Shown in pieces: positions 1-58,891 of a stretch of DNA of 58,910 nucleotides (position 1 is the stretch's first letter; each line of letters starts with the position of its first letter). Both the position numbers and the translations under genes were made by a program. The DNA is from a virus. The notes beneath the pieces were generated by a model. That model was not told the DNA's origin. It did not search any database and worked only from the letters and a program-made list of their open reading frames with translations. The stretch is from positions 1-58,910 of IMG/VR virus record IMGVR_UViG_3300028800_000106; one strand, 5' to 3'.

Positions 1-148
1 CGCAAAGATAGCATTAAGCAAGATCCTCTCCAAGCCCTTGCCGACGCCGGTGTCTCCTACGACGAATTGACCCAGCAGCTCCTCAACCAGCAGCCAACTG
101 ATCCAAGAATACTAAATACTATCAATGAGTTGAAGAACGAGATTAAGA
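1..148. repeat. Left copy of the terminal overlap (circular assembly)
   Basis: These bases recur at 58763-58910, identical except at base 127 (G here, T at 58889). The reading frame of the scaffold gene continues perfectly from 58762 into base 1, so this is best read as the overlap left when a circular or circularly permuted genome was assembled, not as two biological repeats. The mismatch turns GAG (Glu) here into TAG in the right copy. Confidence 0.9.
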
Positions 149-664: not shown

Positions 665-806
665 ATGGCAGCAGTATATGCTAACAGTACGAATCAGATT
701 GCAGCTCTGAAAGAGTTGTACACTGATGATAAAGAATACATGAAGGATCTCGTGTACAAAGAAAACCCATTCTTGGCACTAGTTCCTAAGAATGAGAGTC
801 CTTCCT
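665..806 (+). CDS. Major capsid protein, exon 1 (residues 1-47 plus first base of codon 48)
   Basis: The ATG follows AAAGGA at good spacing. The N-terminal reading includes DKEYMKDLVYKENPFLAL, the usual N-terminal arm of HK97-fold major capsid proteins in this kind of phage. Without splicing, translation stops at a TAA (806-808) that begins on the last exon base. The capsid continues in phase from about 1543 with VPLEYGTPQGRA, normally separated from the PFLALVPK segment by only a few residues. The spliced gene would be 1284 nt, 427 residues. The exon end at T806 is inferred from P1 pairing of the intron (see the intron entry). Confidence 0.85.
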
Positions 807-1542
807 AACCGTCGGGTCTCTTTATTTTCTCGCCCTTAATTGGACGGATTTGCGGGAAAATACATTCCTAGAGATATGGGAATGTAAAACCAACCAAAAA
901 CGGTGAACCCTGAGATGGGAATACCGTGCTAATCTCAAAACATAACAGTTATGAGACAGTGTAGAGCGTAGTACTTGAAACTACTGTAAAAGTAGAATAA
1001 AATAGTACCAAGAGTGGTAGGCAACTCAAAGGAGTTGAAAATGTACGCCGAACAAATGCTAAAGTGCACCGGTCCTTGTGAAGGACTGAAGAGCGAAAGT
1101 GAATTTTATAACTACAAGCATGAGCAGAGATGCAAAACTTGTGTGTCTGGGATAAGAAAAGCTAAGTACCGAATCGAAGCTGAAGTAATAAAGGCTAAGA
1201 GAAGAGAATACGCTAGAAACAACCCAGATAGGATAAAAAACACAAAGCTTAAGCAAGACTTTGGAATTACTCTAAAAGAGTACAACCAAAAGCTCGCCGA
1301 ACAAGATGGCAAATGTGCCATTTGTAAAAGGCCGGAGACGGCCGTTCGAAAGGGTAAACTTCTAATGTTGGCAGTCGATCATAGACACGCCGACAATGTT
1401 AACAGAGGTTTATTGTGCGTTAAGTGTAACAGAGCCCTAGGATTGTTAGAAGAGAATATCTCTACAATCATAAACATGGTTTTGTATATACTGAAGTATT
1501 TGAAGCAGAGATAACAACCTCTGCGATAACAGGGCCAGTAGG
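807..1542 (+). ncRNA. Group I intron (IA2-like) inside the major capsid gene
   Basis: Exon 1 ends TTCCT, which pairs with GGGAA at 854-858 to give P1 with the conserved U-G pair at the splice site. P1 is extended by CCGTC (809-813) with GACGG (843-847). A hairpin at 861-868/879-886 fits P2. ACGGT (900-904) and ACCGT (923-927) fit P4, CCC/GGG inside them fits P5, and the run around 896-931 closely resembles the core of the phage T4 td intron. GTAGT/ACTAC (968-972/980-984) could be P8. The 3' end carries a CAGAG/CTCTG hairpin and a GGGCC/GGCCC hairpin. Ending at G1542 leaves exon 2 in phase. The 5' boundary is well supported; the 3' boundary is the best choice by phase and terminal G, but not proven. 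Confidence 0.85.
1041..1514 (+). CDS. Intron-encoded endonuclease VII-like HNH homing endonuclease
   Basis: 157 residues, lying wholly within the group I intron. The ATG at 1041 has GGAG 6 bases upstream; an earlier in-frame GTG at 1014 lacks a good site. The N-terminus has zinc-type cysteines (CTGPCEGL, then RCKTC). The C-terminal half reads ITLKEYNQKLAEQDGKCAIC, then AVDHRHADNVNRGLLCVKCN, the recombination endonuclease VII type of beta-beta-alpha-metal nuclease: CxxC, DH, and CxxCN. Such enzymes cut intronless alleles and spread their intron. Here the expected target is the capsid gene of related phages. The lineage is recognised from motifs alone. Confidence 0.85.
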   Translation: MYAEQMLKCTGPCEGLKSESEFYNYKHEQRCKTCVSGIRKAKYRIEAEVIKAKRREYARNNPDRIKNTKLKQDFGITLKEYNQKLAEQDGKCAICKRPETAVRKGKLLMLAVDHRHADNVNRGLLCVKCNRALGLLEENISTIINMVLYILKYLKQR

Positions 1543-2684
1543 CCCATTTGGTACCTCTCGAGTACGGCACTCCGCAAGGTCGTGCACATACGTTCTCGAA
1601 CGCTCAGAACCAGCAAACAGCTACGTCGCTTGCATCGTTTTTCGTGTACGTGATCGAGGATTACCAACTCGTCACCATCACGAATCTCTTGATGGAACAG
1701 ACGAAGACGAATGCAGGCGCGTTCGTAGATGCAGCAAAACTCCAGATGGACGGCGGTTTCCGCAACATCACCAACAACATCGCGTTTGAGTTGTTCGGAG
1801 ATGGTACGGCGACACGCGGCTCGTCTAGCGCAGCTTCGACTCAGAACGGCGTAGTGGTTAACGGCACGGTCCTTCCGTTGTCGAACGCTCAGCAGATCGT
1901 TCAGTTCGAAGTCGGCATGCTCCTCGTTGCATCCAGCACTCCTGGCGGCGTCCCGTCGACAGACACCGTCATGGTGACCTCTGTTGACCGCGCCAACGGT
2001 ATCGTGACTGGTACTGCATCGGCAGCAACTCTGTCTGGTAACTGGGCAATCGGCACCGGTATTGCATACCTCAGCATCTCAGGCGATATTCCGACTGCTG
2101 GAGCGACTAGCACTTCTAGCTACCTCGCACTGTCTGGATTGGCTGCATGGCTCCCGATCACGACTCCTGCGACTACGGACTCCTTCTGGGGTGTTAACCG
2201 TTCTGCAGATCCGACTCGATTGGCAGGCTGCCGCTTTAACGCGACTAGCTACACCATCGAAGAAGGTCTTACGAACGCACTTGCATTCTTGAACCGTGAA
2301 GGCGGTAAGCCAGATCTTTGCATCATGGACTTTGCTTCATATGCATCCCTGGTCAATGCTCTCGGCGCCAAGGTCCAGTACGTCCAGGTCAATCATGACG
2401 AAGTCGAAGTAGCATTCGAAGGAATTACCTTCCAGTCTGCTTATGGCCGGGTCACCGTGTTGGCTGATCGTAGCTGCCCTCCCCAGACTGCTTACCTCCT
2501 CACCATGAATACGTGGAAATTGCGATCACTTGGAAAAGTACCGCATATCCTTACTTATGGAATGGAAGGCCTCGAAGGATTGCGCGTCGGAAATGCTGAC
2601 GCCCTTGAGATCAGAATTGGGTATTATGGGAACTTAATTTGTTCCGCGCCCGGTTGGAATTGTGTGGTCAGTCTTTCGGCCTAG
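1543..2684 (+). CDS. Major capsid protein, exon 2 (residues 48-427)
   Basis: Open from the 3' splice site to TAG at 2684. It begins, after the split codon T|CC, with HLVPLEYGTPQGRAHTFSNA and continues through VIEDYQLVTITNLLMEQTKT and AAKLQMDGGFRNI. This is the E-loop/P-domain layout of HK97-fold coat proteins. The C-terminal part contains CIMDFASYASLVNALG and VTVLADRSCPPQTAYLL, also usual for this family. No start codon with a ribosome site precedes it; an in-frame TAG lies just upstream at 1539-1541. It therefore depends on splicing to exon 1 rather than independent initiation. A strong terminator follows, as expected for a highly expressed late gene. Confidence 0.88.
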
Positions 2685-5863: not shown

Positions 5864-6097
5864 ATGAAACAAGTATACGAATTAAGCAAAAGAGAAGTAG
5901 AAATAACTGACATGGACTTTAACGGCGATACAGTATTGGTGATCGATGCGTATTACGTCGATAAGGACGAACAGCTATCAGATGAAGAGTTATCTGATCT
6001 CCAAGATAAGTACGCCGAAGAGCTTGCTCAAGAAGCCTATGAGCACATGGTTGATCAAGCCCACGACAGACTCGAAGCATTGTGGGAGCGAGTATGA
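5864..6097 (+). CDS. Small acidic protein of unknown function
   Basis: 77 residues, start chosen at the ATG 5 bases after AGGAGGAA. It is strongly acidic with an N-terminal beta-like stretch (VLVIDAYYVD) and a C-terminal amphipathic helix (ELSDLQDKYAEELAQEAYEHMV). The stop overlaps the next ATG by 4 bases, tying its translation to the repeat-protein gene. It could be a dedicated partner or regulator of that protein; nothing more can be said. Confidence 0.6.
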   Translation: MKQVYELSKREVEITDMDFNGDTVLVIDAYYVDKDEQLSDEELSDLQDKYAEELAQEAYEHMVDQAHDRLEALWERV

Positions 6098-7377
6098 TCA
6101 TCAAATTAACCAAAGACCAAGAATCTAAAATCCCAGTGTATTTAAACAAATGGGTTTCAGCAGGCCTTCGTACCGAGACTACTGACAGGACTACGGCAAC
6201 AGAAGCTGTTTATTTCCTGTACGAAAAGATCATGGGAATTGAAAAGCCTAAGTACGTCATCTTTTTGGACTCGCCGATGGCTTGTCAGCTGGCTGCGAAT
6301 CTGATCAAGAATACTAAGTTCGATAGCTCGCAGCTAGGCTCGCAGCTATGCTCGCAGCTATACTCGCAGCTACACTCGCAGATAGACTCGCAGCTAGGCT
6401 CGCAGCTATACTCGCAGCTATACGTGCAGCTATACTCGCAGCTATACGTGCAGCTAGGCTCGCAGCTATACTCGCAGCTATACTCGCAGCTAGACTCGCA
6501 GCTAGGCTCGCAGCTATACTCGCAGCTAGGCTCGCAGCTACGCTCGCAGCTAGGCGTGCAGCTATACTCGCAGCTATACTCGCAGCTAGGCTCGCAGCTA
6601 TACTCGCAGCTAGGCTCGCAGCTACACTCGCAGCTATACTCGCAGCTATACTCGCAGCTACACTCGCAGCTAGACTCGCAGCTAGGCTCGCAGCTATACT
6701 CGCAGCTATACTCGCAGCTAGGCTCGCAGCTACGCTCGCAAGAATTAGAATATTTCTATTATTCCCCAAACCTTTGGTGGTGGCCAGGATGGTGCGGCTT
6801 CTATAATTACTTGCTTAACGAAGTATTTCAAGACCGTAAAAAGGATTTCTCCCTGTTTGAAGAATTGCTTACTCACTGGAAAGAAGCACATTATTATCTT
6901 ATTTTCCCAGAAATCGCATTTGTTTCAGATTTCCCGAAAGAAATCCACAGAAACACCAAAAATGATCTTCACGCAAACGGAAGACCTGCGCTAGAATACC
7001 GAGACTCATACGGATTGTTCCGATTGAATGGAGTGGAAGTACCAGAGTGGGCCGCCCTTAATAAGCCAGAAGATCTAGTTGCGAAAGATGTAATCGCGAT
7101 CAAGAACACTGATTCTAGGCGCGAAGTAATGAAAAAAGTCGGAATATCTAGACTATTCCAAGACTTAGAAGCAAAGAAACTAAACGCCAAGGATGAATAC
7201 GAACTCTACCGAGTAAAGTTAGGAGAGGATTTCGAAGGGACTTACCTTAAGATGATTAATCCAAGCACCGGTGAAATCCATGTAGAGGGTATTCCTGACG
7301 AGATTAAGACGTGCTCGGAAGCACTTGCATGGCGAATCGGACTTAAATTGTATAGAGAACCAGTAATCAAAACATAG
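6094..7377 (+). CDS. Tetrapeptide-repeat (SQLX) protein with DUF6745-like C-terminal region
   Basis: 427 residues from the ATG in the ATGA overlap. Residues 1-78 are helical. Residues 79-214 are 34 uninterrupted tetrapeptides of the form Ser/Val-Gln-Leu/Ile-X, X being Y, G, H, D, R or C. Residues 220-427 include WWPGWCGFYNYLLNEVF, GRPALEYRDSYGLFRLNGV and VPEWAALNKPEDL, a pattern I associate with the uncharacterised DUF6745 family (from memory). The repeats could form a regular solenoid or coil with X on one face. No enzyme motif is visible. An adjacent gene 8 bases downstream appears functionally linked. Function unknown; high interest. Confidence 0.75.
   Translation: MIIKLTKDQESKIPVYLNKWVSAGLRTETTDRTTATEAVYFLYEKIMGIEKPKYVIFLDSPMACQLAANLIKNTKFDSSQLGSQLCSQLYSQLHSQIDSQLGSQLYSQLYVQLYSQLYVQLGSQLYSQLYSQLDSQLGSQLYSQLGSQLRSQLGVQLYSQLYSQLGSQLYSQLGSQLHSQLYSQLYSQLHSQLDSQLGSQLYSQLYSQLGSQLRSQELEYFYYSPNLWWWPGWCGFYNYLLNEVFQDRKKDFSLFEELLTHWKEAHYYLIFPEIAFVSDFPKEIHRNTKNDLHANGRPALEYRDSYGLFRLNGVEVPEWAALNKPEDLVAKDVIAIKNTDSRREVMKKVGISRLFQDLEAKKLNAKDEYELYRVKLGEDFEGTYLKMINPSTGEIHVEGIPDEIKTCSEALAWRIGLKLYREPVIKT
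6328..6735 (+). repeat. 34 tandem copies of a 12-bp unit (SQLX codons)
   Basis: Each unit is TCG CAG CTA followed by a codon ending in C. Ser, Gln and Leu codons are almost always identical even at silent positions (exceptions: three GTG for TCG, one ATA for CTA). The fourth codon varies only at its first two bases: T, C or G, then A or G, then C. Because the unit is a multiple of three, the other frames are also open and repetitive; those are shadows. Confidence 0.97.
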
Positions 7378-12057: not shown

Positions 12058-12453
12058 TTACTTAAATCGACCTCTGTTGTCTCTAACTACATTGTATTTT
12101 TTAGTTCTATGGCTCGAGCCTTTGCCCGAACTGTTTCGACCTTTCTTTATCATGTCAGCAATATTATCGGCGACAGTCCCAAGAAACAAATGCTGAATGT
12201 TGCAACATTTCCTATTGTCGCATTTATGAAGCACGCACATTCCTGGAGAAATAGCGCCATATGCAAGCTCCCAAGCAACTCGATGCGCCTTATTAATCTT
12301 ATGTTTTCTGGTTCCCGGGATTTTCCTGGTGAATATTCCGTAGCCGCTCTTATCCAGTCTCTTCGGATATTCCCAGCAACCATTTTCAGTTCTAACAGCA
12401 TCTTTCATATGGCCAAAGAAAATCTCTCTAAGAGTTTTGGTTACGTAAGGCAT
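12058..12453 (-). CDS. HNH homing endonuclease, antisense in the virion operon
   Basis: 131 residues on the minus strand between two plus-strand structural genes. The sequence ENGCWEYPKRLDKSGYGIF, then NKAHRVAWELAYG, CVLHKCDNRKCCNIQHLFLG and DMIKKGRNSSGKG is the HNH_3 type of free-standing endonuclease: His in AHR, CDN, then NxxHL. AGGAGGT lies just before the ATG. Its base composition is AT-richer than the flanking genes. Being antisense, it cannot be expressed from the late operon and needs its own minus-strand promoter. Confidence 0.85.
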   Translation of the reverse strand: MPYVTKTLREIFFGHMKDAVRTENGCWEYPKRLDKSGYGIFTRKIPGTRKHKINKAHRVAWELAYGAISPGMCVLHKCDNRKCCNIQHLFLGTVADNIADMIKKGRNSSGKGSSHRTKKYNVVRDNRGRFK

Positions 12454-38672: not shown

Positions 38673-39082
38673 TGAAAAATACATTCGAAACTCTTTGCAA
38701 AGAACTCGAAGCGGAAATCGAGCAGTCCTACACAGAAGGTATTACAGCAGACCATGCCGAGAAGCTAGCAGGCCGGTTCCTACACGCCCAAATGAAAGTC
38801 TCAAACGAACTCCGGAATGCCGACCTGGACAGCAGGATGCGCAAGTCCGGAGTAAAAGCAGTCCGGGCCGCGATCTATCTAGATGCTGCTACTAAGGATG
38901 CCAAGAAACCAAGCGACGTTATGTTAGATGCTATTGTAAACTCCAATGAGCTAGTATCTGGCGAGCAGAAAGCTTATGATCAGGCAGAGGCATTAAGAGA
39001 TGAGCTGGAGAGATATTTTAATATTTTTAAGGAAGCGCATCTTCATTTCAGAAATATAGCAAAAGGACGCTTCGGTGACTAA
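38672..39082 (+). CDS. Candidate recombination mediator (UvsY-like)
   Basis: 136 residues, TAATG overlap. All-helical: AEKLAGRFLHAQMKVSNELR, RMRKSGVKAVRAAIYLDAAT, QAEALRDELERYFNIFKEAH, then FRNIAKG. The size, helical content and position just ahead of the RecA-like gene fit UvsY-type loaders that help the recombinase displace SSB. Recognised by pattern only; it could also be an unrelated helical protein. Confidence 0.5.
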   Translation: MKNTFETLCKELEAEIEQSYTEGITADHAEKLAGRFLHAQMKVSNELRNADLDSRMRKSGVKAVRAAIYLDAATKDAKKPSDVMLDAIVNSNELVSGEQKAYDQAEALRDELERYFNIFKEAHLHFRNIAKGRFGD

Positions 39083-39533
39083 GGATTTCTCGTCTAGATT
39101 CTGGGCTAAAGTTGAAATCATTCCTACGTATCCATGCTGGGAATGGACAGCAACAAAACGAGACGGCTATGGCCAAATAAGCAAAGACGGAAAGATGCAT
39201 AATGCTCATAGAATCAGCTATGAGATGCACGTCGGCCCTGTCACTAAAAATATGCAAGTATGCCACACTTGTGATAATCGAGGTTGCGTAAATCCTCATC
39301 ATTTGTTTTTGGGAACAAAAGACGATAATTTGAGAGATATGATAAAGAAAGGAAGACATAGTTCAGCAAAGGGGGAGACTCAACATTTGTCCAAACTTAC
39401 AAATCTGATGGTGCTTGAGATAAGAAAATTAGCAGCAGCCGGCATTCCTCGCAAAGTTATAGCAACAACTTATGACATAACTAAAGAGAATGTAGGATAT
39501 ATAGTAACTAGAAAAACCTGGAAGCACATCTAA
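39075..39533 (+). CDS. HNH homing endonuclease between recombination genes
   Basis: 152 residues; GTG start overlapping the previous gene, with AAGGA upstream. Motifs: YPCWEWTATKRDGYGQI, AHRISYEM, CHTCDNRGCVNPHHLFLGTK (HNH_3 core), RDMIKKGRHSSAKG, then a helix-turn-helix-like C-terminus (LEIRKLAAAGIPRKVIATTY). It resembles the antisense HNH at 12058. Free-standing, neatly inserted with TAATG to the recA-like gene. Its target may be an adjacent recombination gene in related phages. Confidence 0.85.
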   Translation: MTKDFSSRFWAKVEIIPTYPCWEWTATKRDGYGQISKDGKMHNAHRISYEMHVGPVTKNMQVCHTCDNRGCVNPHHLFLGTKDDNLRDMIKKGRHSSAKGETQHLSKLTNLMVLEIRKLAAAGIPRKVIATTYDITKENVGYIVTRKTWKHI

Positions 39534-41420: not shown

Positions 41421-42838
41421 GAATCTTAAACGTAAAGCTAGGAAATTTTGGTAGTTATCCATCTCTCGGTTTTGACTTCCAGAATCATGGGCTTACTCTG
41501 ATCCAAGGCGCGACCGGCTCGGGGAAGTCCACGCTGTGCGACGCGGTACCGTGGATCTTGTTCGGACGCACAGCCAAGGGTGGAGCAGTAAACGAAGTAA
41601 TAGGCTGGAATGGAAGCGGCGAGACAACAGGAATTGCAGAGATCGAAGTAAAAGGAGAGAGAATCTCGGTGTACAGGCAGCGAGGAAAAGTAAATGATTT
41701 TTACTTCTCGAAAGATAGCAACCCAAGCCCCATACGCGGTAAAGACTTAGCAGATACACAGAAACTCCTAAACAGCCTCCTGGGCATAGACGCAGAGCTT
41801 TACCTATCCGGTGCTTACTTCCACGAGTTCAGCCAAACTGCGCAGTTCTTCACTACTACGGCTAAGAATCGCAGGACTATCTGCGAGCAAATCGTGGACC
41901 TGTCTTTAGCCAAAACATTGCAAATGAACACGGCTACCAATATTAAGGTTCTTAAGGACCAACTATCTTATATGGAGGGAGAAATACAAACTCTTAGGTC
42001 AAACGTATCATTACTGTATCGTCTACAGGAAACTGAGAACGGTAAACACACTGCTTGGGAGGTCAATCACGCCTCAACAAAGCACCGAATAGCTACCAAT
42101 CTAAAGCGCTTCGAAGAAGATCGAAAAAAGATCATTACTAATAAATGCTCATCCTGTGGGACTGTTCTAGCCGAACCTAGGGAAATAACTAATACAGCAG
42201 CCAATCCTTATCTTTCACAACTAGAGATACTAGAGTCCGAAACAAACCCACACACCGGCTCGGTAAAAAGTTTCTTAGAGGAGATTGACTCGAAGCAGCA
42301 TGAGACGGAATATTTGGAACTAAGAAAATCCTTTATAGTAAAAGATATAACAGACTTGGGTTTGTTAGTAGATGTCTTAGCAGAGTTCCGAGGTCTCCTT
42401 ATCAAGAACACAGTCCAGGACTTAGAGACTAATACAAACAAATTCTTAACCAACCACTTCGATGCAGAAATCACCATAGCGCTCAATATAGTAGATGCTG
42501 ACAAACTAGAGGTCTCAGTCCAAAAAGATGGAAATGAGTGTGTTTACTCACAGTTATCTAAAGGCCAGCGCCAACTACTCAAACTCTGTTTCGGTGTATC
42601 TGTCATGCAAGCCGTAGAGAATCACCATGGAGTTAAATTCGCACAGATCTTCCTTGACGAGGCATTAGACGGCTGTGACGATCAGATTAAGTTAAAGGCA
42701 TTACAGCTCCTTAGGACTATCTCGCTACAGTACGAATCAGTATTTATCATAGAGCACTCTAGTGAGTTTAAGGCCCAAATGGAGAACCAATACAAAGTAG
42801 AACTAGTCAACGGGGAGTCTCAGATTGCGCACATGTAA
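41417..42838 (+). CDS. SbcC/Rad50-like ATPase with short coil
   Basis: 473 residues. Walker A GATGSGKST at 34-42, Q-loop region YHEFSQTAQFF, zinc hook NKCSSCGTVL near residue 245, signature LSKGQRQ, Walker B IFLDEALDGCD and switch IIEHSSEF. Compared with cellular SbcC (about 1000) the coiled coil is drastically short, like T4 gp46 or shorter. With the SbcD-like subunit it forms the end-processing complex. The last bases overlap the start of the following HNH gene. Confidence 0.87.
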   Translation: MRILNVKLGNFGSYPSLGFDFQNHGLTLIQGATGSGKSTLCDAVPWILFGRTAKGGAVNEVIGWNGSGETTGIAEIEVKGERISVYRQRGKVNDFYFSKDSNPSPIRGKDLADTQKLLNSLLGIDAELYLSGAYFHEFSQTAQFFTTTAKNRRTICEQIVDLSLAKTLQMNTATNIKVLKDQLSYMEGEIQTLRSNVSLLYRLQETENGKHTAWEVNHASTKHRIATNLKRFEEDRKKIITNKCSSCGTVLAEPREITNTAANPYLSQLEILESETNPHTGSVKSFLEEIDSKQHETEYLELRKSFIVKDITDLGLLVDVLAEFRGLLIKNTVQDLETNTNKFLTNHFDAEITIALNIVDADKLEVSVQKDGNECVYSQLSKGQRQLLKLCFGVSVMQAVENHHGVKFAQIFLDEALDGCDDQIKLKALQLLRTISLQYESVFIIEHSSEFKAQMENQYKVELVNGESQIAHM

Positions 42839-43385
42839 AAAAGGCCATAAGTACAACTTAGAATACGACTTCAATGGCCGTAAAAAAGGGTGCCCTGAAT
42901 GCTCTAAAATCCGATCGGCAGAATATCACAAAAGACGTAAACAAGCAGCAGATTTTTTGGAAAGGCATCGAGACACACAGGCTAAGCATTATAAAGCTAA
43001 AGGGAATACTGAAGATGCCAGGTTAATGCAAAGAGGCAACAGGTTAAAGACTCGATATTGGCCGCATCTCACAGGTTTGGAAGCCTTACGAGAGTATGAG
43101 AAAATGCTTGCAGAACAGGAATATTGCTGTAAGATATGTGAAGTACATCAAGACCAATATGATACCGCCTTTCATGTAGACCATTGTCACACTACAGAAA
43201 GGGTTAGAGGCTTACTATGCGGGGTCTGTAACAGGTACATAGTAGGGGGTATTGATATACGAGCTAAAGCGAGCAAGGTTCACATTTCTAAGTTCACCCT
43301 GGTGAACAACGTACTTAAGTATTTTATTGAGACCGATCCAGAGTATATAAAATATGATAAAATGCGAGAGGATGAGAAGAAATGA
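42825..43385 (+). CDS. Endonuclease VII-like HNH protein
   Basis: 186 residues; TTG start with GGGGAG 8 bases upstream, overlapping the SbcC-like stop. An N-terminal zinc ribbon (TCKKGHKYNLEYDFNGRKKG, CPEC) and a basic linker lead to REYEKMLAEQEYCCKICEVH, HVDHCHTTERVRGLLCGVCN, the endonuclease VII-type HNH core. It is related in design to the intron-encoded enzyme at 1041. It may resolve DNA junctions for the phage (true endonuclease VII role) or be a free-standing homing enzyme; both fit the recombination neighbourhood. Confidence 0.8.
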   Translation: MRTCKKGHKYNLEYDFNGRKKGCPECSKIRSAEYHKRRKQAADFLERHRDTQAKHYKAKGNTEDARLMQRGNRLKTRYWPHLTGLEALREYEKMLAEQEYCCKICEVHQDQYDTAFHVDHCHTTERVRGLLCGVCNRYIVGGIDIRAKASKVHISKFTLVNNVLKYFIETDPEYIKYDKMREDEKK

Positions 43386-58312: not shown

Positions 58313-58891
58313 ATGAGAGTACAACCAGTATCCGGTCCGCACGCCATATCGCCAGTAAACACGACGAATAATTCTAACTCACGATCTGCAGCAATCGCAG
58401 CTTTCGAGAAGGCGAGCACTCCTCCTCAACAAGCCCAGGAAAATCCAGTACTTAACCCTAATAAAGTATCTCCAGAAGAGCTATCCGCCGTTAATACGCC
58501 GCGGCAGGAATTGACCGACAACTCTTCGGAAACTCCGAATAGTTCAGACAATTCCACTATTTCTGAGCCCCAAGAAGAGACCCAGGCTCCTCCCAAAGAT
58601 ACTCCAGAGAGTAGACGATGGGCTCAGCTTGCTCGCACAGAGAGACAGCTCCGAGCAAAAGCACTGCAACAAGAAGCCGCAATTAAGGCCAGAGAGGCCG
58701 CGATCCAAGCCCGCGAAGACGCAATCGCAGCGAAGGATAAGGAATACAGTACTGGGTATTACCGCAAAGATAGCATTAAGCAAGATCCTCTCCAAGCCCT
58801 TGCCGACGCCGGTGTCTCCTACGACGAATTGACCCAGCAGCTCCTCAACCAGCAGCCAACTGATCCAAGAATACTAAATACTATCAATTAG
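58313..58891 (+). CDS. Capsid scaffolding protein, N-terminal part (continues at base 1)
   Basis: The frame begins at ATG 58313 and, across the circle, continues through base 1 to 612 (353 residues). Residues 1-105 are Pro/Ser/Asn/Glu-rich and disordered. Residues 105-145 are a strong coiled coil (ARTERQLRAKALQQEAAIKA, REAAIQAREDAIAAKDKEYS). In the right-hand overlap the Glu codon GAG is TAG at 58889-58891, giving a false or variant stop. The left-hand copy is intact, so the gene is probably functional. Confidence 0.75.
   Translation: MRVQPVSGPHAISPVNTTNNSNSRSAAIAAFEKASTPPQQAQENPVLNPNKVSPEELSAVNTPRQELTDNSSETPNSSDNSTISEPQEETQAPPKDTPESRRWAQLARTERQLRAKALQQEAAIKAREAAIQAREDAIAAKDKEYSTGYYRKDSIKQDPLQALADAGVSYDELTQQLLNQQPTDPRILNTIN

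What the first reader, a model, noticed from the sequence alone, without database searches (positions are those of the whole stretch)
665..2684. Major capsid gene split by a group I intron carrying an endonuclease VII-like HNH gene
Seen: exon 1 (47 codons) ends at an in-frame TAA created at the exon edge, and the capsid frame resumes about 740 bases later without its own start. Between them lie td-like core elements, a P1 pairing TTCCT with GGGAA, P1 extension CCGTC/GACGG, and an HNH gene. Known: group I introns in phage structural genes are much rarer than in DNA-metabolism genes. Inference: capsid synthesis, hence lysis timing, depends on self-splicing; spliced length is 427 residues.
Basis: partly seen in the sequence, partly recalled or inferred. 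Interest (0 to 1): 0.82.

Follow-up and report, generated by a model that had tools for sequence, protein, structure and literature searches.

The report
Capsid gene with a core-less mini-intron
The main shell gene of this uncultured phage is interrupted twice, by an ordinary self-splicing (group I) intron carrying a DNA-cutting gene and, just upstream, by a 40-base insert that holds only the splicing guide and no catalyst; the same mini-inserts recur in dozens of phages, always upstream of a complete intron in the same gene, which suggests a class of introns that borrows its neighbour's catalytic RNA.

Summary
Intronless relatives read KNESP-DGFAGKYIP-VPLEYG. The window's DGFAGKYIP codons lie at 843-869, inside the supposed intron. 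So there are two inserts: 803-842 (40 nt) and 870-1550 (681 nt, the full intron). Removing both gives a 432-residue capsid protein. The full intron's group I core is supported by covariation (24 pairs with changes on both sides), although Rfam misses it. The 40-nt insert is the surprise. It starts after U, ends in G, and holds one guide pairing with both exon ends (P1 with U.G at the splice site; adjacent P10), and no core. I found 26 distinct such minis (30-59 nt) in 28 of 117 capsid genes. All 28 also have a complete intron downstream; none of the 80 genes without a complete intron has a mini (p=1.6e-19). Two more occur in a P22-like coat family, again upstream of HNH-less group I introns. 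Best reading: guide-only, non-autonomous mini-introns spliced by a neighbouring group I core. Splicing itself was not observed.

The parts
665..802 (+). Exon 1 of the major capsid gene (codons 1-46, ends ...GAGAGTCCT)
   Evidence: Alignment to intronless relatives
803..842 (+). 40-nt mini-intron without catalytic core: in-frame TAA near its start, P10 guide 809-813, guide G814 and P1 strand 814-821, Px strand 823-833, terminal G842
   Evidence: Absent from intronless relatives; U before and G at the end; P1 795-802/814-821 with one U-U mismatch; P10 CCGTC/GACGG; Px TATTTTCTCGC with GCGGGAAAATA
843..869 (+). 27-nt exon 2 (DGFAGKYIP); holds the P10 partner 843-847, the Px partner 852-862 and the P1 strand of the long intron 862-869
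   Evidence: Matches DGFAGKYIP of intronless relatives
870..1550 (+). Complete group I intron (IA-like, no P2): guide strand 878-885, P3 890-896/1015-1021, P4 901-904/923-926, P7 966-970/1044-1048, P7.1 972-975/991-994, P8 1023-1027/1032-1036
   Evidence: 92.4% of cells paired and 24 doubly changed pairs over 16 relatives, 0/500 shuffles as high; boundaries
1041..1514 (+). Intron-encoded endonuclease VII-like HNH protein (157 aa); its ATG directly precedes the 3' strand of P7
   Evidence: Pfam PF02945 2.6e-16, PHROG 2633 7.8e-28
1551..2684 (+). Exon 3 of the major capsid gene (codons 56-432 and stop)
   Evidence: Alignment to relatives; SU10-like MCP (24.0 bits against cut-off 24.1) and PHROG 9953 major head protein 1.6e-8

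Best explanation
The capsid gene carries a complete HNH-bearing group I intron (870-1550) and, 27 nt upstream, a 40-nt non-autonomous mini-intron (803-842) reduced to splice-site recognition. The mini's guide pairs with the 5' exon (P1, with the U.G wobble that marks the 5' splice site) and with the 3' exon (P10); its tail pairs with the 3' exon a few bases further on (Px). The RNA thus forms two adjacent hairpins whose loops pair through P10, bringing the two splice sites together. A group I catalytic core supplied by the neighbouring complete intron, on the same transcript or after its own excision, performs the two transesterifications. Shown by sequence: the two inserts, exact frame-restoring boundaries, U/G ends, covarying P1 and P10, Px at most sites, and the constant presence of a complete intron downstream in the same gene. 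Inferred: that the mini is removed from RNA, that group I chemistry does it, and that the neighbour's core is the catalyst. Cis versus trans action is open.
For: 26 distinct minis of 30-59 nt, all with U before and G at the end, frame restored, and one guide with P1 and directly adjacent P10; P1 and P10 pairs change together between phages. 28 of 37 capsid genes with a complete intron have a mini, 0 of 80 without; 15 different site combinations. HNH-less introns suffice in the gene (L020 203 nt, L124 249 nt). P10 longer in minis than in complete introns (5.8 vs 2.9 bp). CCT at codon 46 in 8/8 site-46 genes vs 19/103 others. Same anatomy in a P22-like coat family (L375, L424). Complete introns and minis share site 51. 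Engineered group I ribozymes can remove introns in trans (PMC4094466).
Against: No transcript evidence. Px is lacking at sites 28, 30, 31 and 34 and in L064 at site 46. Co-occurrence could partly reflect co-transfer by homing rather than catalytic dependence, and the strict upstream position has no clear chemical reason. Four minis need a bulged U in P1. Many genes with complete introns have no mini, so presence of a core is at most necessary. All mini-bearing contigs are uncultured.
Confidence: 0.7

Rival explanations
1. The short inserts are ribosomal bypass elements, like the 50-nt gap of T4 gene 60 or the byps of Magnusiomyces mitochondria; only the long insert is spliced.
For: Similar size; a stop codon lies in frame at or near the start of nearly all; hairpins at the take-off side; association with mobile endonucleases recalls gene 60 (bypass review PMC5009743).
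Against: Take-off and landing triplets do not match (site 22 GAT vs ATG/GTG; site 46 CCT mostly vs TTG). Bypassing does not require U before, G at the end, nor a guide complementary to both exons with a U.G at the junction. Association with HNH-less group I introns is not explained.
Confidence: 0.08
2. The minis are removed at the RNA level but by a core elsewhere in the genome or by a protein factor, and their link to complete introns in the same gene only reflects joint transfer by homing (co-conversion).
For: Intron homing drags flanking sequence along (reviewed in PMC2988022); most partners carry HNH genes; only capsid genes were found with minis.
Against: 15 combinations of mini and intron site rather than a fixed cassette; minis with only HNH-less introns in the gene (L020, L124, L375, L424); no mini without a complete intron in 117 genes.
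Confidence: 0.13
3. The minis are relics that break the gene, or assembly errors; the capsid genes with them are dead or misassembled.
For: All sequences are metagenome contigs.
Against: 26 distinct minis in contigs from many metagenomes with guides matched to each phage's own exons; exons remain conserved (window vs L002: 237 synonymous and 43 nonsynonymous codon differences).
Confidence: 0.03
4. One reading: one group I intron from T806 to C1543.
For: In-frame TAA and a possible TTCCT/GGGAA pairing.
Against: It deletes the conserved DGFAGKYIP segment present in intronless relatives and encoded at 843-869; its GGGAA lies in codons of that segment; the true long intron has a perfect P1 at 862-869/878-885.
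Confidence: 0.01

Closest known systems
Group I introns of phage genes (T4 td/nrdD type; LittleE capsid intron, PMC3706429)
   Same: The long insert has the group I core, U/G ends, P1, and an endonuclease gene in a capsid gene; the minis have the same ends, P1 and P10
   Different: The minis have no P3-P8 core at all and are 30-59 nt long
Engineered group I spliceozymes (PMC4094466)
   Same: An intron without a core of its own is removed, splice sites being recognised by base pairing, with a group I core elsewhere
   Different: Engineered; the guide there sits in the ribozyme, here it sits in the removed intron itself
T4 gene 60 bypass element and Magnusiomyces byps (PMC5009743)
   Same: Short frame-breaking inserts of similar size in an essential gene; early stop codon
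   Different: [quoted passage not shown] here a splice guide with U/G ends
Euglenid plastid group III introns (own knowledge, not tested)
   Same: Autocatalytic introns reduced to about 100 nt that lost catalytic domains and are thought to rely on factors in trans
   Different: Those descend from group II introns; these are group I-like and shorter

Membership tests
Group I intron (long insert 870-1550) | Conserved core P3-P8 with P7 guanosine site | tested here: met
   Covariation of P3, P4, P5, P7.1 and invariant P7 over 16 relatives; P6 proper not resolved; Rfam RF00028 gives no hit
Group I intron (long insert 870-1550) | U at the end of the 5' exon in a U.G pair of P1, G at the intron end | tested here: met
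   ATACATTCCT|...ATTTG|GTACC, P1 862-869/878-885
Group I intron (long insert 870-1550) | Self-splicing with guanosine | not testable with these tools
   No RNA data
Group I intron (mini 803-842) | U.G P1 at the 5' splice site, P10, terminal G | tested here: met
   All 26 distinct minis
Group I intron (mini 803-842) | Own catalytic core P3-P8 | tested here: not met
   30-59 nt in all, taken up by guide, tail helix and ends
Ribosomal bypass element | Matching take-off and landing codons | tested here: not met
   GAT vs ATG/GTG, CCT mostly vs TTG, etc.
Ribosomal bypass element | Insert retained in mRNA and skipped by the ribosome | not testable with these tools
   No RNA or protein data
Trans-acting group I ribozyme system (spliceozyme-like) | A group I core outside the intron that is removed | tested here: inconclusive
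   A complete intron is always present downstream in the same gene (28/28; L375 and L424), but use of its core is inferred

The most novel reading that the evidence does not exclude
A natural two-component splicing system based on group I RNA: core-less 30-59 nt introns that encode only recognition (guide plus clamp hairpin) and are excised by a catalytic core in a neighbouring intron, sometimes several minis per gene (two in L064, L008, L010 and L077). This would be the group I counterpart of the proposed step from self-splicing group II introns to spliceosomal introns.
Probability: 0.55. Interest if true: 0.94.

Novelty: categorically new. Interest (0 to 1): 0.87.

Why it matters
All natural group I introns known to me carry their own catalytic core. 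Introns cut down to recognition sequences, with catalysis delegated to another RNA, are what models of spliceosome origin require; for group I they existed, as far as I could find, only as engineered constructs (PMC4094466). Here more than two dozen natural cases sit in an essential phage gene, with complete introns, minis and intronless alleles as ready comparisons, so the dependency can be tested directly. It also warns that capsid genes in metagenomes may be mis-annotated when a 30-60 nt insert looks like a frameshift or truncation.

Tried and rejected
Rfam at gathering and E<=10: no group I hit in the window or in relatives, although the T4 nrdD control scores; replaced by comparative structure counting. 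Exon skipping between mini and full intron: rejected, because several intervening exons are not multiples of 3 (e.g. L001, L068). Minis in other genes of the same loci: a split-hit scan found none of 22-75 nt outside capsid genes; terminase relatives show no inserts; PolA relatives were not found. Capsid relatives in cultured phages and in bacterial genomes: none. Other phage records with related cores (Roseobacter CRP-118, ctn9Y15) have the full intron but no mini that I could see. An ab initio mini detector gave 22 upstream vs 4 downstream hits around 222 cores; some are known capsid minis and most of the others look like chance matches in coding sequence. Literature searches found no description of core-less group I introns; only open-access papers are held. 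Left open: L320 has an 11-nt frame-breaking insert too short for a guide.

Full report
WHAT WAS CHECKED. ORF 665-808 and a capsid frame continuing to 2684 are present. The ORF between them (1041-1514) is an EndoVII-type HNH protein. The downstream frame matches SU10-like major capsid models weakly (24.0 bits against a cut-off of 24.1; PHROG major head protein 1.6e-8).

THE JUNCTION. A viral-contig scan gave 80 relatives of the capsid protein. Intronless ones read ...KNESP-DGFAGKYIP-VPLEYG.... A protein-to-DNA alignment that allows inserts places two inserts in the window: 40 nt after codon 46 and 681 nt after codon 55. The spliced product is 432 residues, the length of the intronless relative L002.

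THE LONG INSERT IS A GROUP I INTRON. Its 5' site is ATACATTCCT|AGAGATATGGGAATGT, a P1 with U.G at the splice site, and it ends ATTTG|GTACC. Rfam does not score it, although the same scan scores the T4 nrdD intron at 105 bits. Aligning the 5' part of 16 relatives and counting a named structure (P1, P3, P4, P5, an arm before P7, P7, P7.1, P7.2, P8) gives 92.4% of cells paired against 30-44% for slid versions, 24 pairs with a change on both sides, and 0 of 500 shuffles as high. P7 is invariant in this class, P6 proper was not resolved and parts of P7.2 and P8 pair poorly in this alignment. A second class of about 200 nt without ORF in other relatives folds into P3-P6, P8 and P9, with 22 of 37 pairs supported by double changes.

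THE SHORT INSERT IS THE SURPRISE. Two scans gave 117 distinct capsid genes. 28 carry one or two inserts of 30-59 nt, 26 of them distinct. Each begins after a U, ends in G and restores frame when removed. Each contains one guide: a segment pairing with the first bases of the 3' exon (P10, 5-8 bp), then G opposite the last U of the 5' exon, then a segment pairing with the 5' exon (P1). At site 46 exons with AAAGCCCT have guide GGGGCTTT, and exons with GAGAGTCCT have guides matching that variant; P10 pairs likewise change together between phages. Nearly all have an in-frame stop codon at or near their start, as I recall for T4 introns. Four site-30/31 guides need one bulged U in P1.

A SECOND HELIX. 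At sites 22, 35, 46 (seven of eight), 51 and 413 the tail pairs with the 3' exon just beyond the P10 strand (Px, about 7-11 bp). In the folded strand P1 and Px form side-by-side hairpins, with P1 favoured in most minis and Px near certainty in 16 of 26. P10 then joins their loops. In the window the parts are P1 795-802/814-821, P10 809-813/843-847 and Px 823-833/852-862. Minis at sites 28, 30, 31 and 34 lack a clear Px. Shuffled tails reach the Px energy rarely at most of these sites but not at all of them, so Px is less secure than P1 and P10.

DEPENDENCE ON A NEIGHBOURING CORE. All 28 genes with a mini have a complete intron further downstream; none of the 80 genes without a complete intron has a mini (Fisher p=1.6e-19; related sequences make this an overstatement of independence). 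Mini sites and intron sites combine in 15 ways, so this is not one fixed cassette. In L020 and L124 the downstream partner is an intron without an endonuclease ORF. P10 is longer in minis than in complete introns (mean 5.8 vs 2.9 bp, p=1e-8; the two sets were scored by slightly different rules). This fits a 3' site that must be positioned without an attached core. All eight site-46 mini genes have CCT at codon 46, against 19 of 103 others.

A SECOND CAPSID FAMILY. Scanning viral contigs for the P7 motifs and aligning a P22-like coat protein (query from MW202674) found 32- and 34-nt minis in L375 and L424 after QFAVV. Each lies upstream of a group I intron of about 225 nt. Both fold into the same P1 and Px hairpins, and P10 differs between them in a compensatory way (exon +4 T with guide A; exon +4 G with guide C). 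Most P22-like coat loci with complete introns have no mini, so a core does not require a mini.

MECHANISM. The simplest reading is that the minis are introns reduced to recognition sequence and are excised by group I chemistry using a core outside themselves. At site 51 complete introns (L013, L027, L036, L096, L100, L109) and minis (L014, L124) occupy the same position, which suggests descent by internal deletion. Whether the neighbour acts before its own excision (cis) or afterwards as a free RNA whose P1 site is empty (trans) cannot be told from sequence. The constant upstream position is unexplained.

WHAT IS KNOWN. Splicing of a capsid-gene intron of probable group I type was shown for mycobacteriophage LittleE (PMC3706429), so the long intron is a new member of a known kind. 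Introns removed by a separate group I ribozyme exist as engineered spliceozymes (PMC4094466). Ribosomal bypassing (PMC5009743) is the main rival for short inserts, but its matched-codon feature is absent here. No paper found in the searchable library describes guide-only group I introns; subscription papers and most preprints are not held.

VERDICT. The minis fail one defining feature of group I introns, their own core, and meet the others that can be tested, so they are not filed as group I introns but as elements that work like them with a borrowed core.

LIMITS. No transcript was seen, the sequences are metagenomic, and no cultured phage with a mini was found.

Noticed in passing
window 1-126 and 58763-58888: 126-nt exact direct repeat at the two ends, continuing to the window end (58910) with one mismatch: the contig looks like a circularly permuted complete phage genome of about 58.8 kb.
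   Followed up: partly
window 6327-6740: 34.5 copies of a 12-nt tandem repeat inside ORF 6082-7377, coding SQLY/SQLG-type repeats.
   Followed up: no
window 12058-12453 (-), 39075-39533, 42825-43385: Further ORFs that look like free-standing HNH or EndoVII-like endonucleases by eye; not searched against families.
   Followed up: no
L077 and L035 capsid genes: Very intron-dense genes: L077 has three complete introns and two minis, L035 three complete introns and one mini.
   Followed up: partly
L010, insert after codon 14: The 888-nt insert has a 218-aa ORF that looks like a GIY-YIG endonuclease by eye, where L008 has a 206-nt intron; not tested by profile.
   Followed up: no
L064, L070, L087, L094, L098, L105, L116 downstream of the capsid gene: Relatives of one downstream protein (L074_4) share an insert of about 710-755 nt, possibly another intron.
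   Followed up: no
L186 and L320-L427 P22-like coat genes: Inserts of about 225-275 nt at many sites (codons 39, 48, 51, 85, 104, 109, 204, 357, 387) of a coat gene, several of them checked or likely group I introns.
   Followed up: partly
L320 5927-5937: 11-nt frame-breaking insert CTATAAACCTG after a U and ending in G, upstream of a 232-nt group I intron; too short for a guide.
   Followed up: partly
window 870-1550; L020: The Rfam group I model RF00028 misses both intron classes seen here, so these introns are probably under-annotated in phage genomes.
   Followed up: partly
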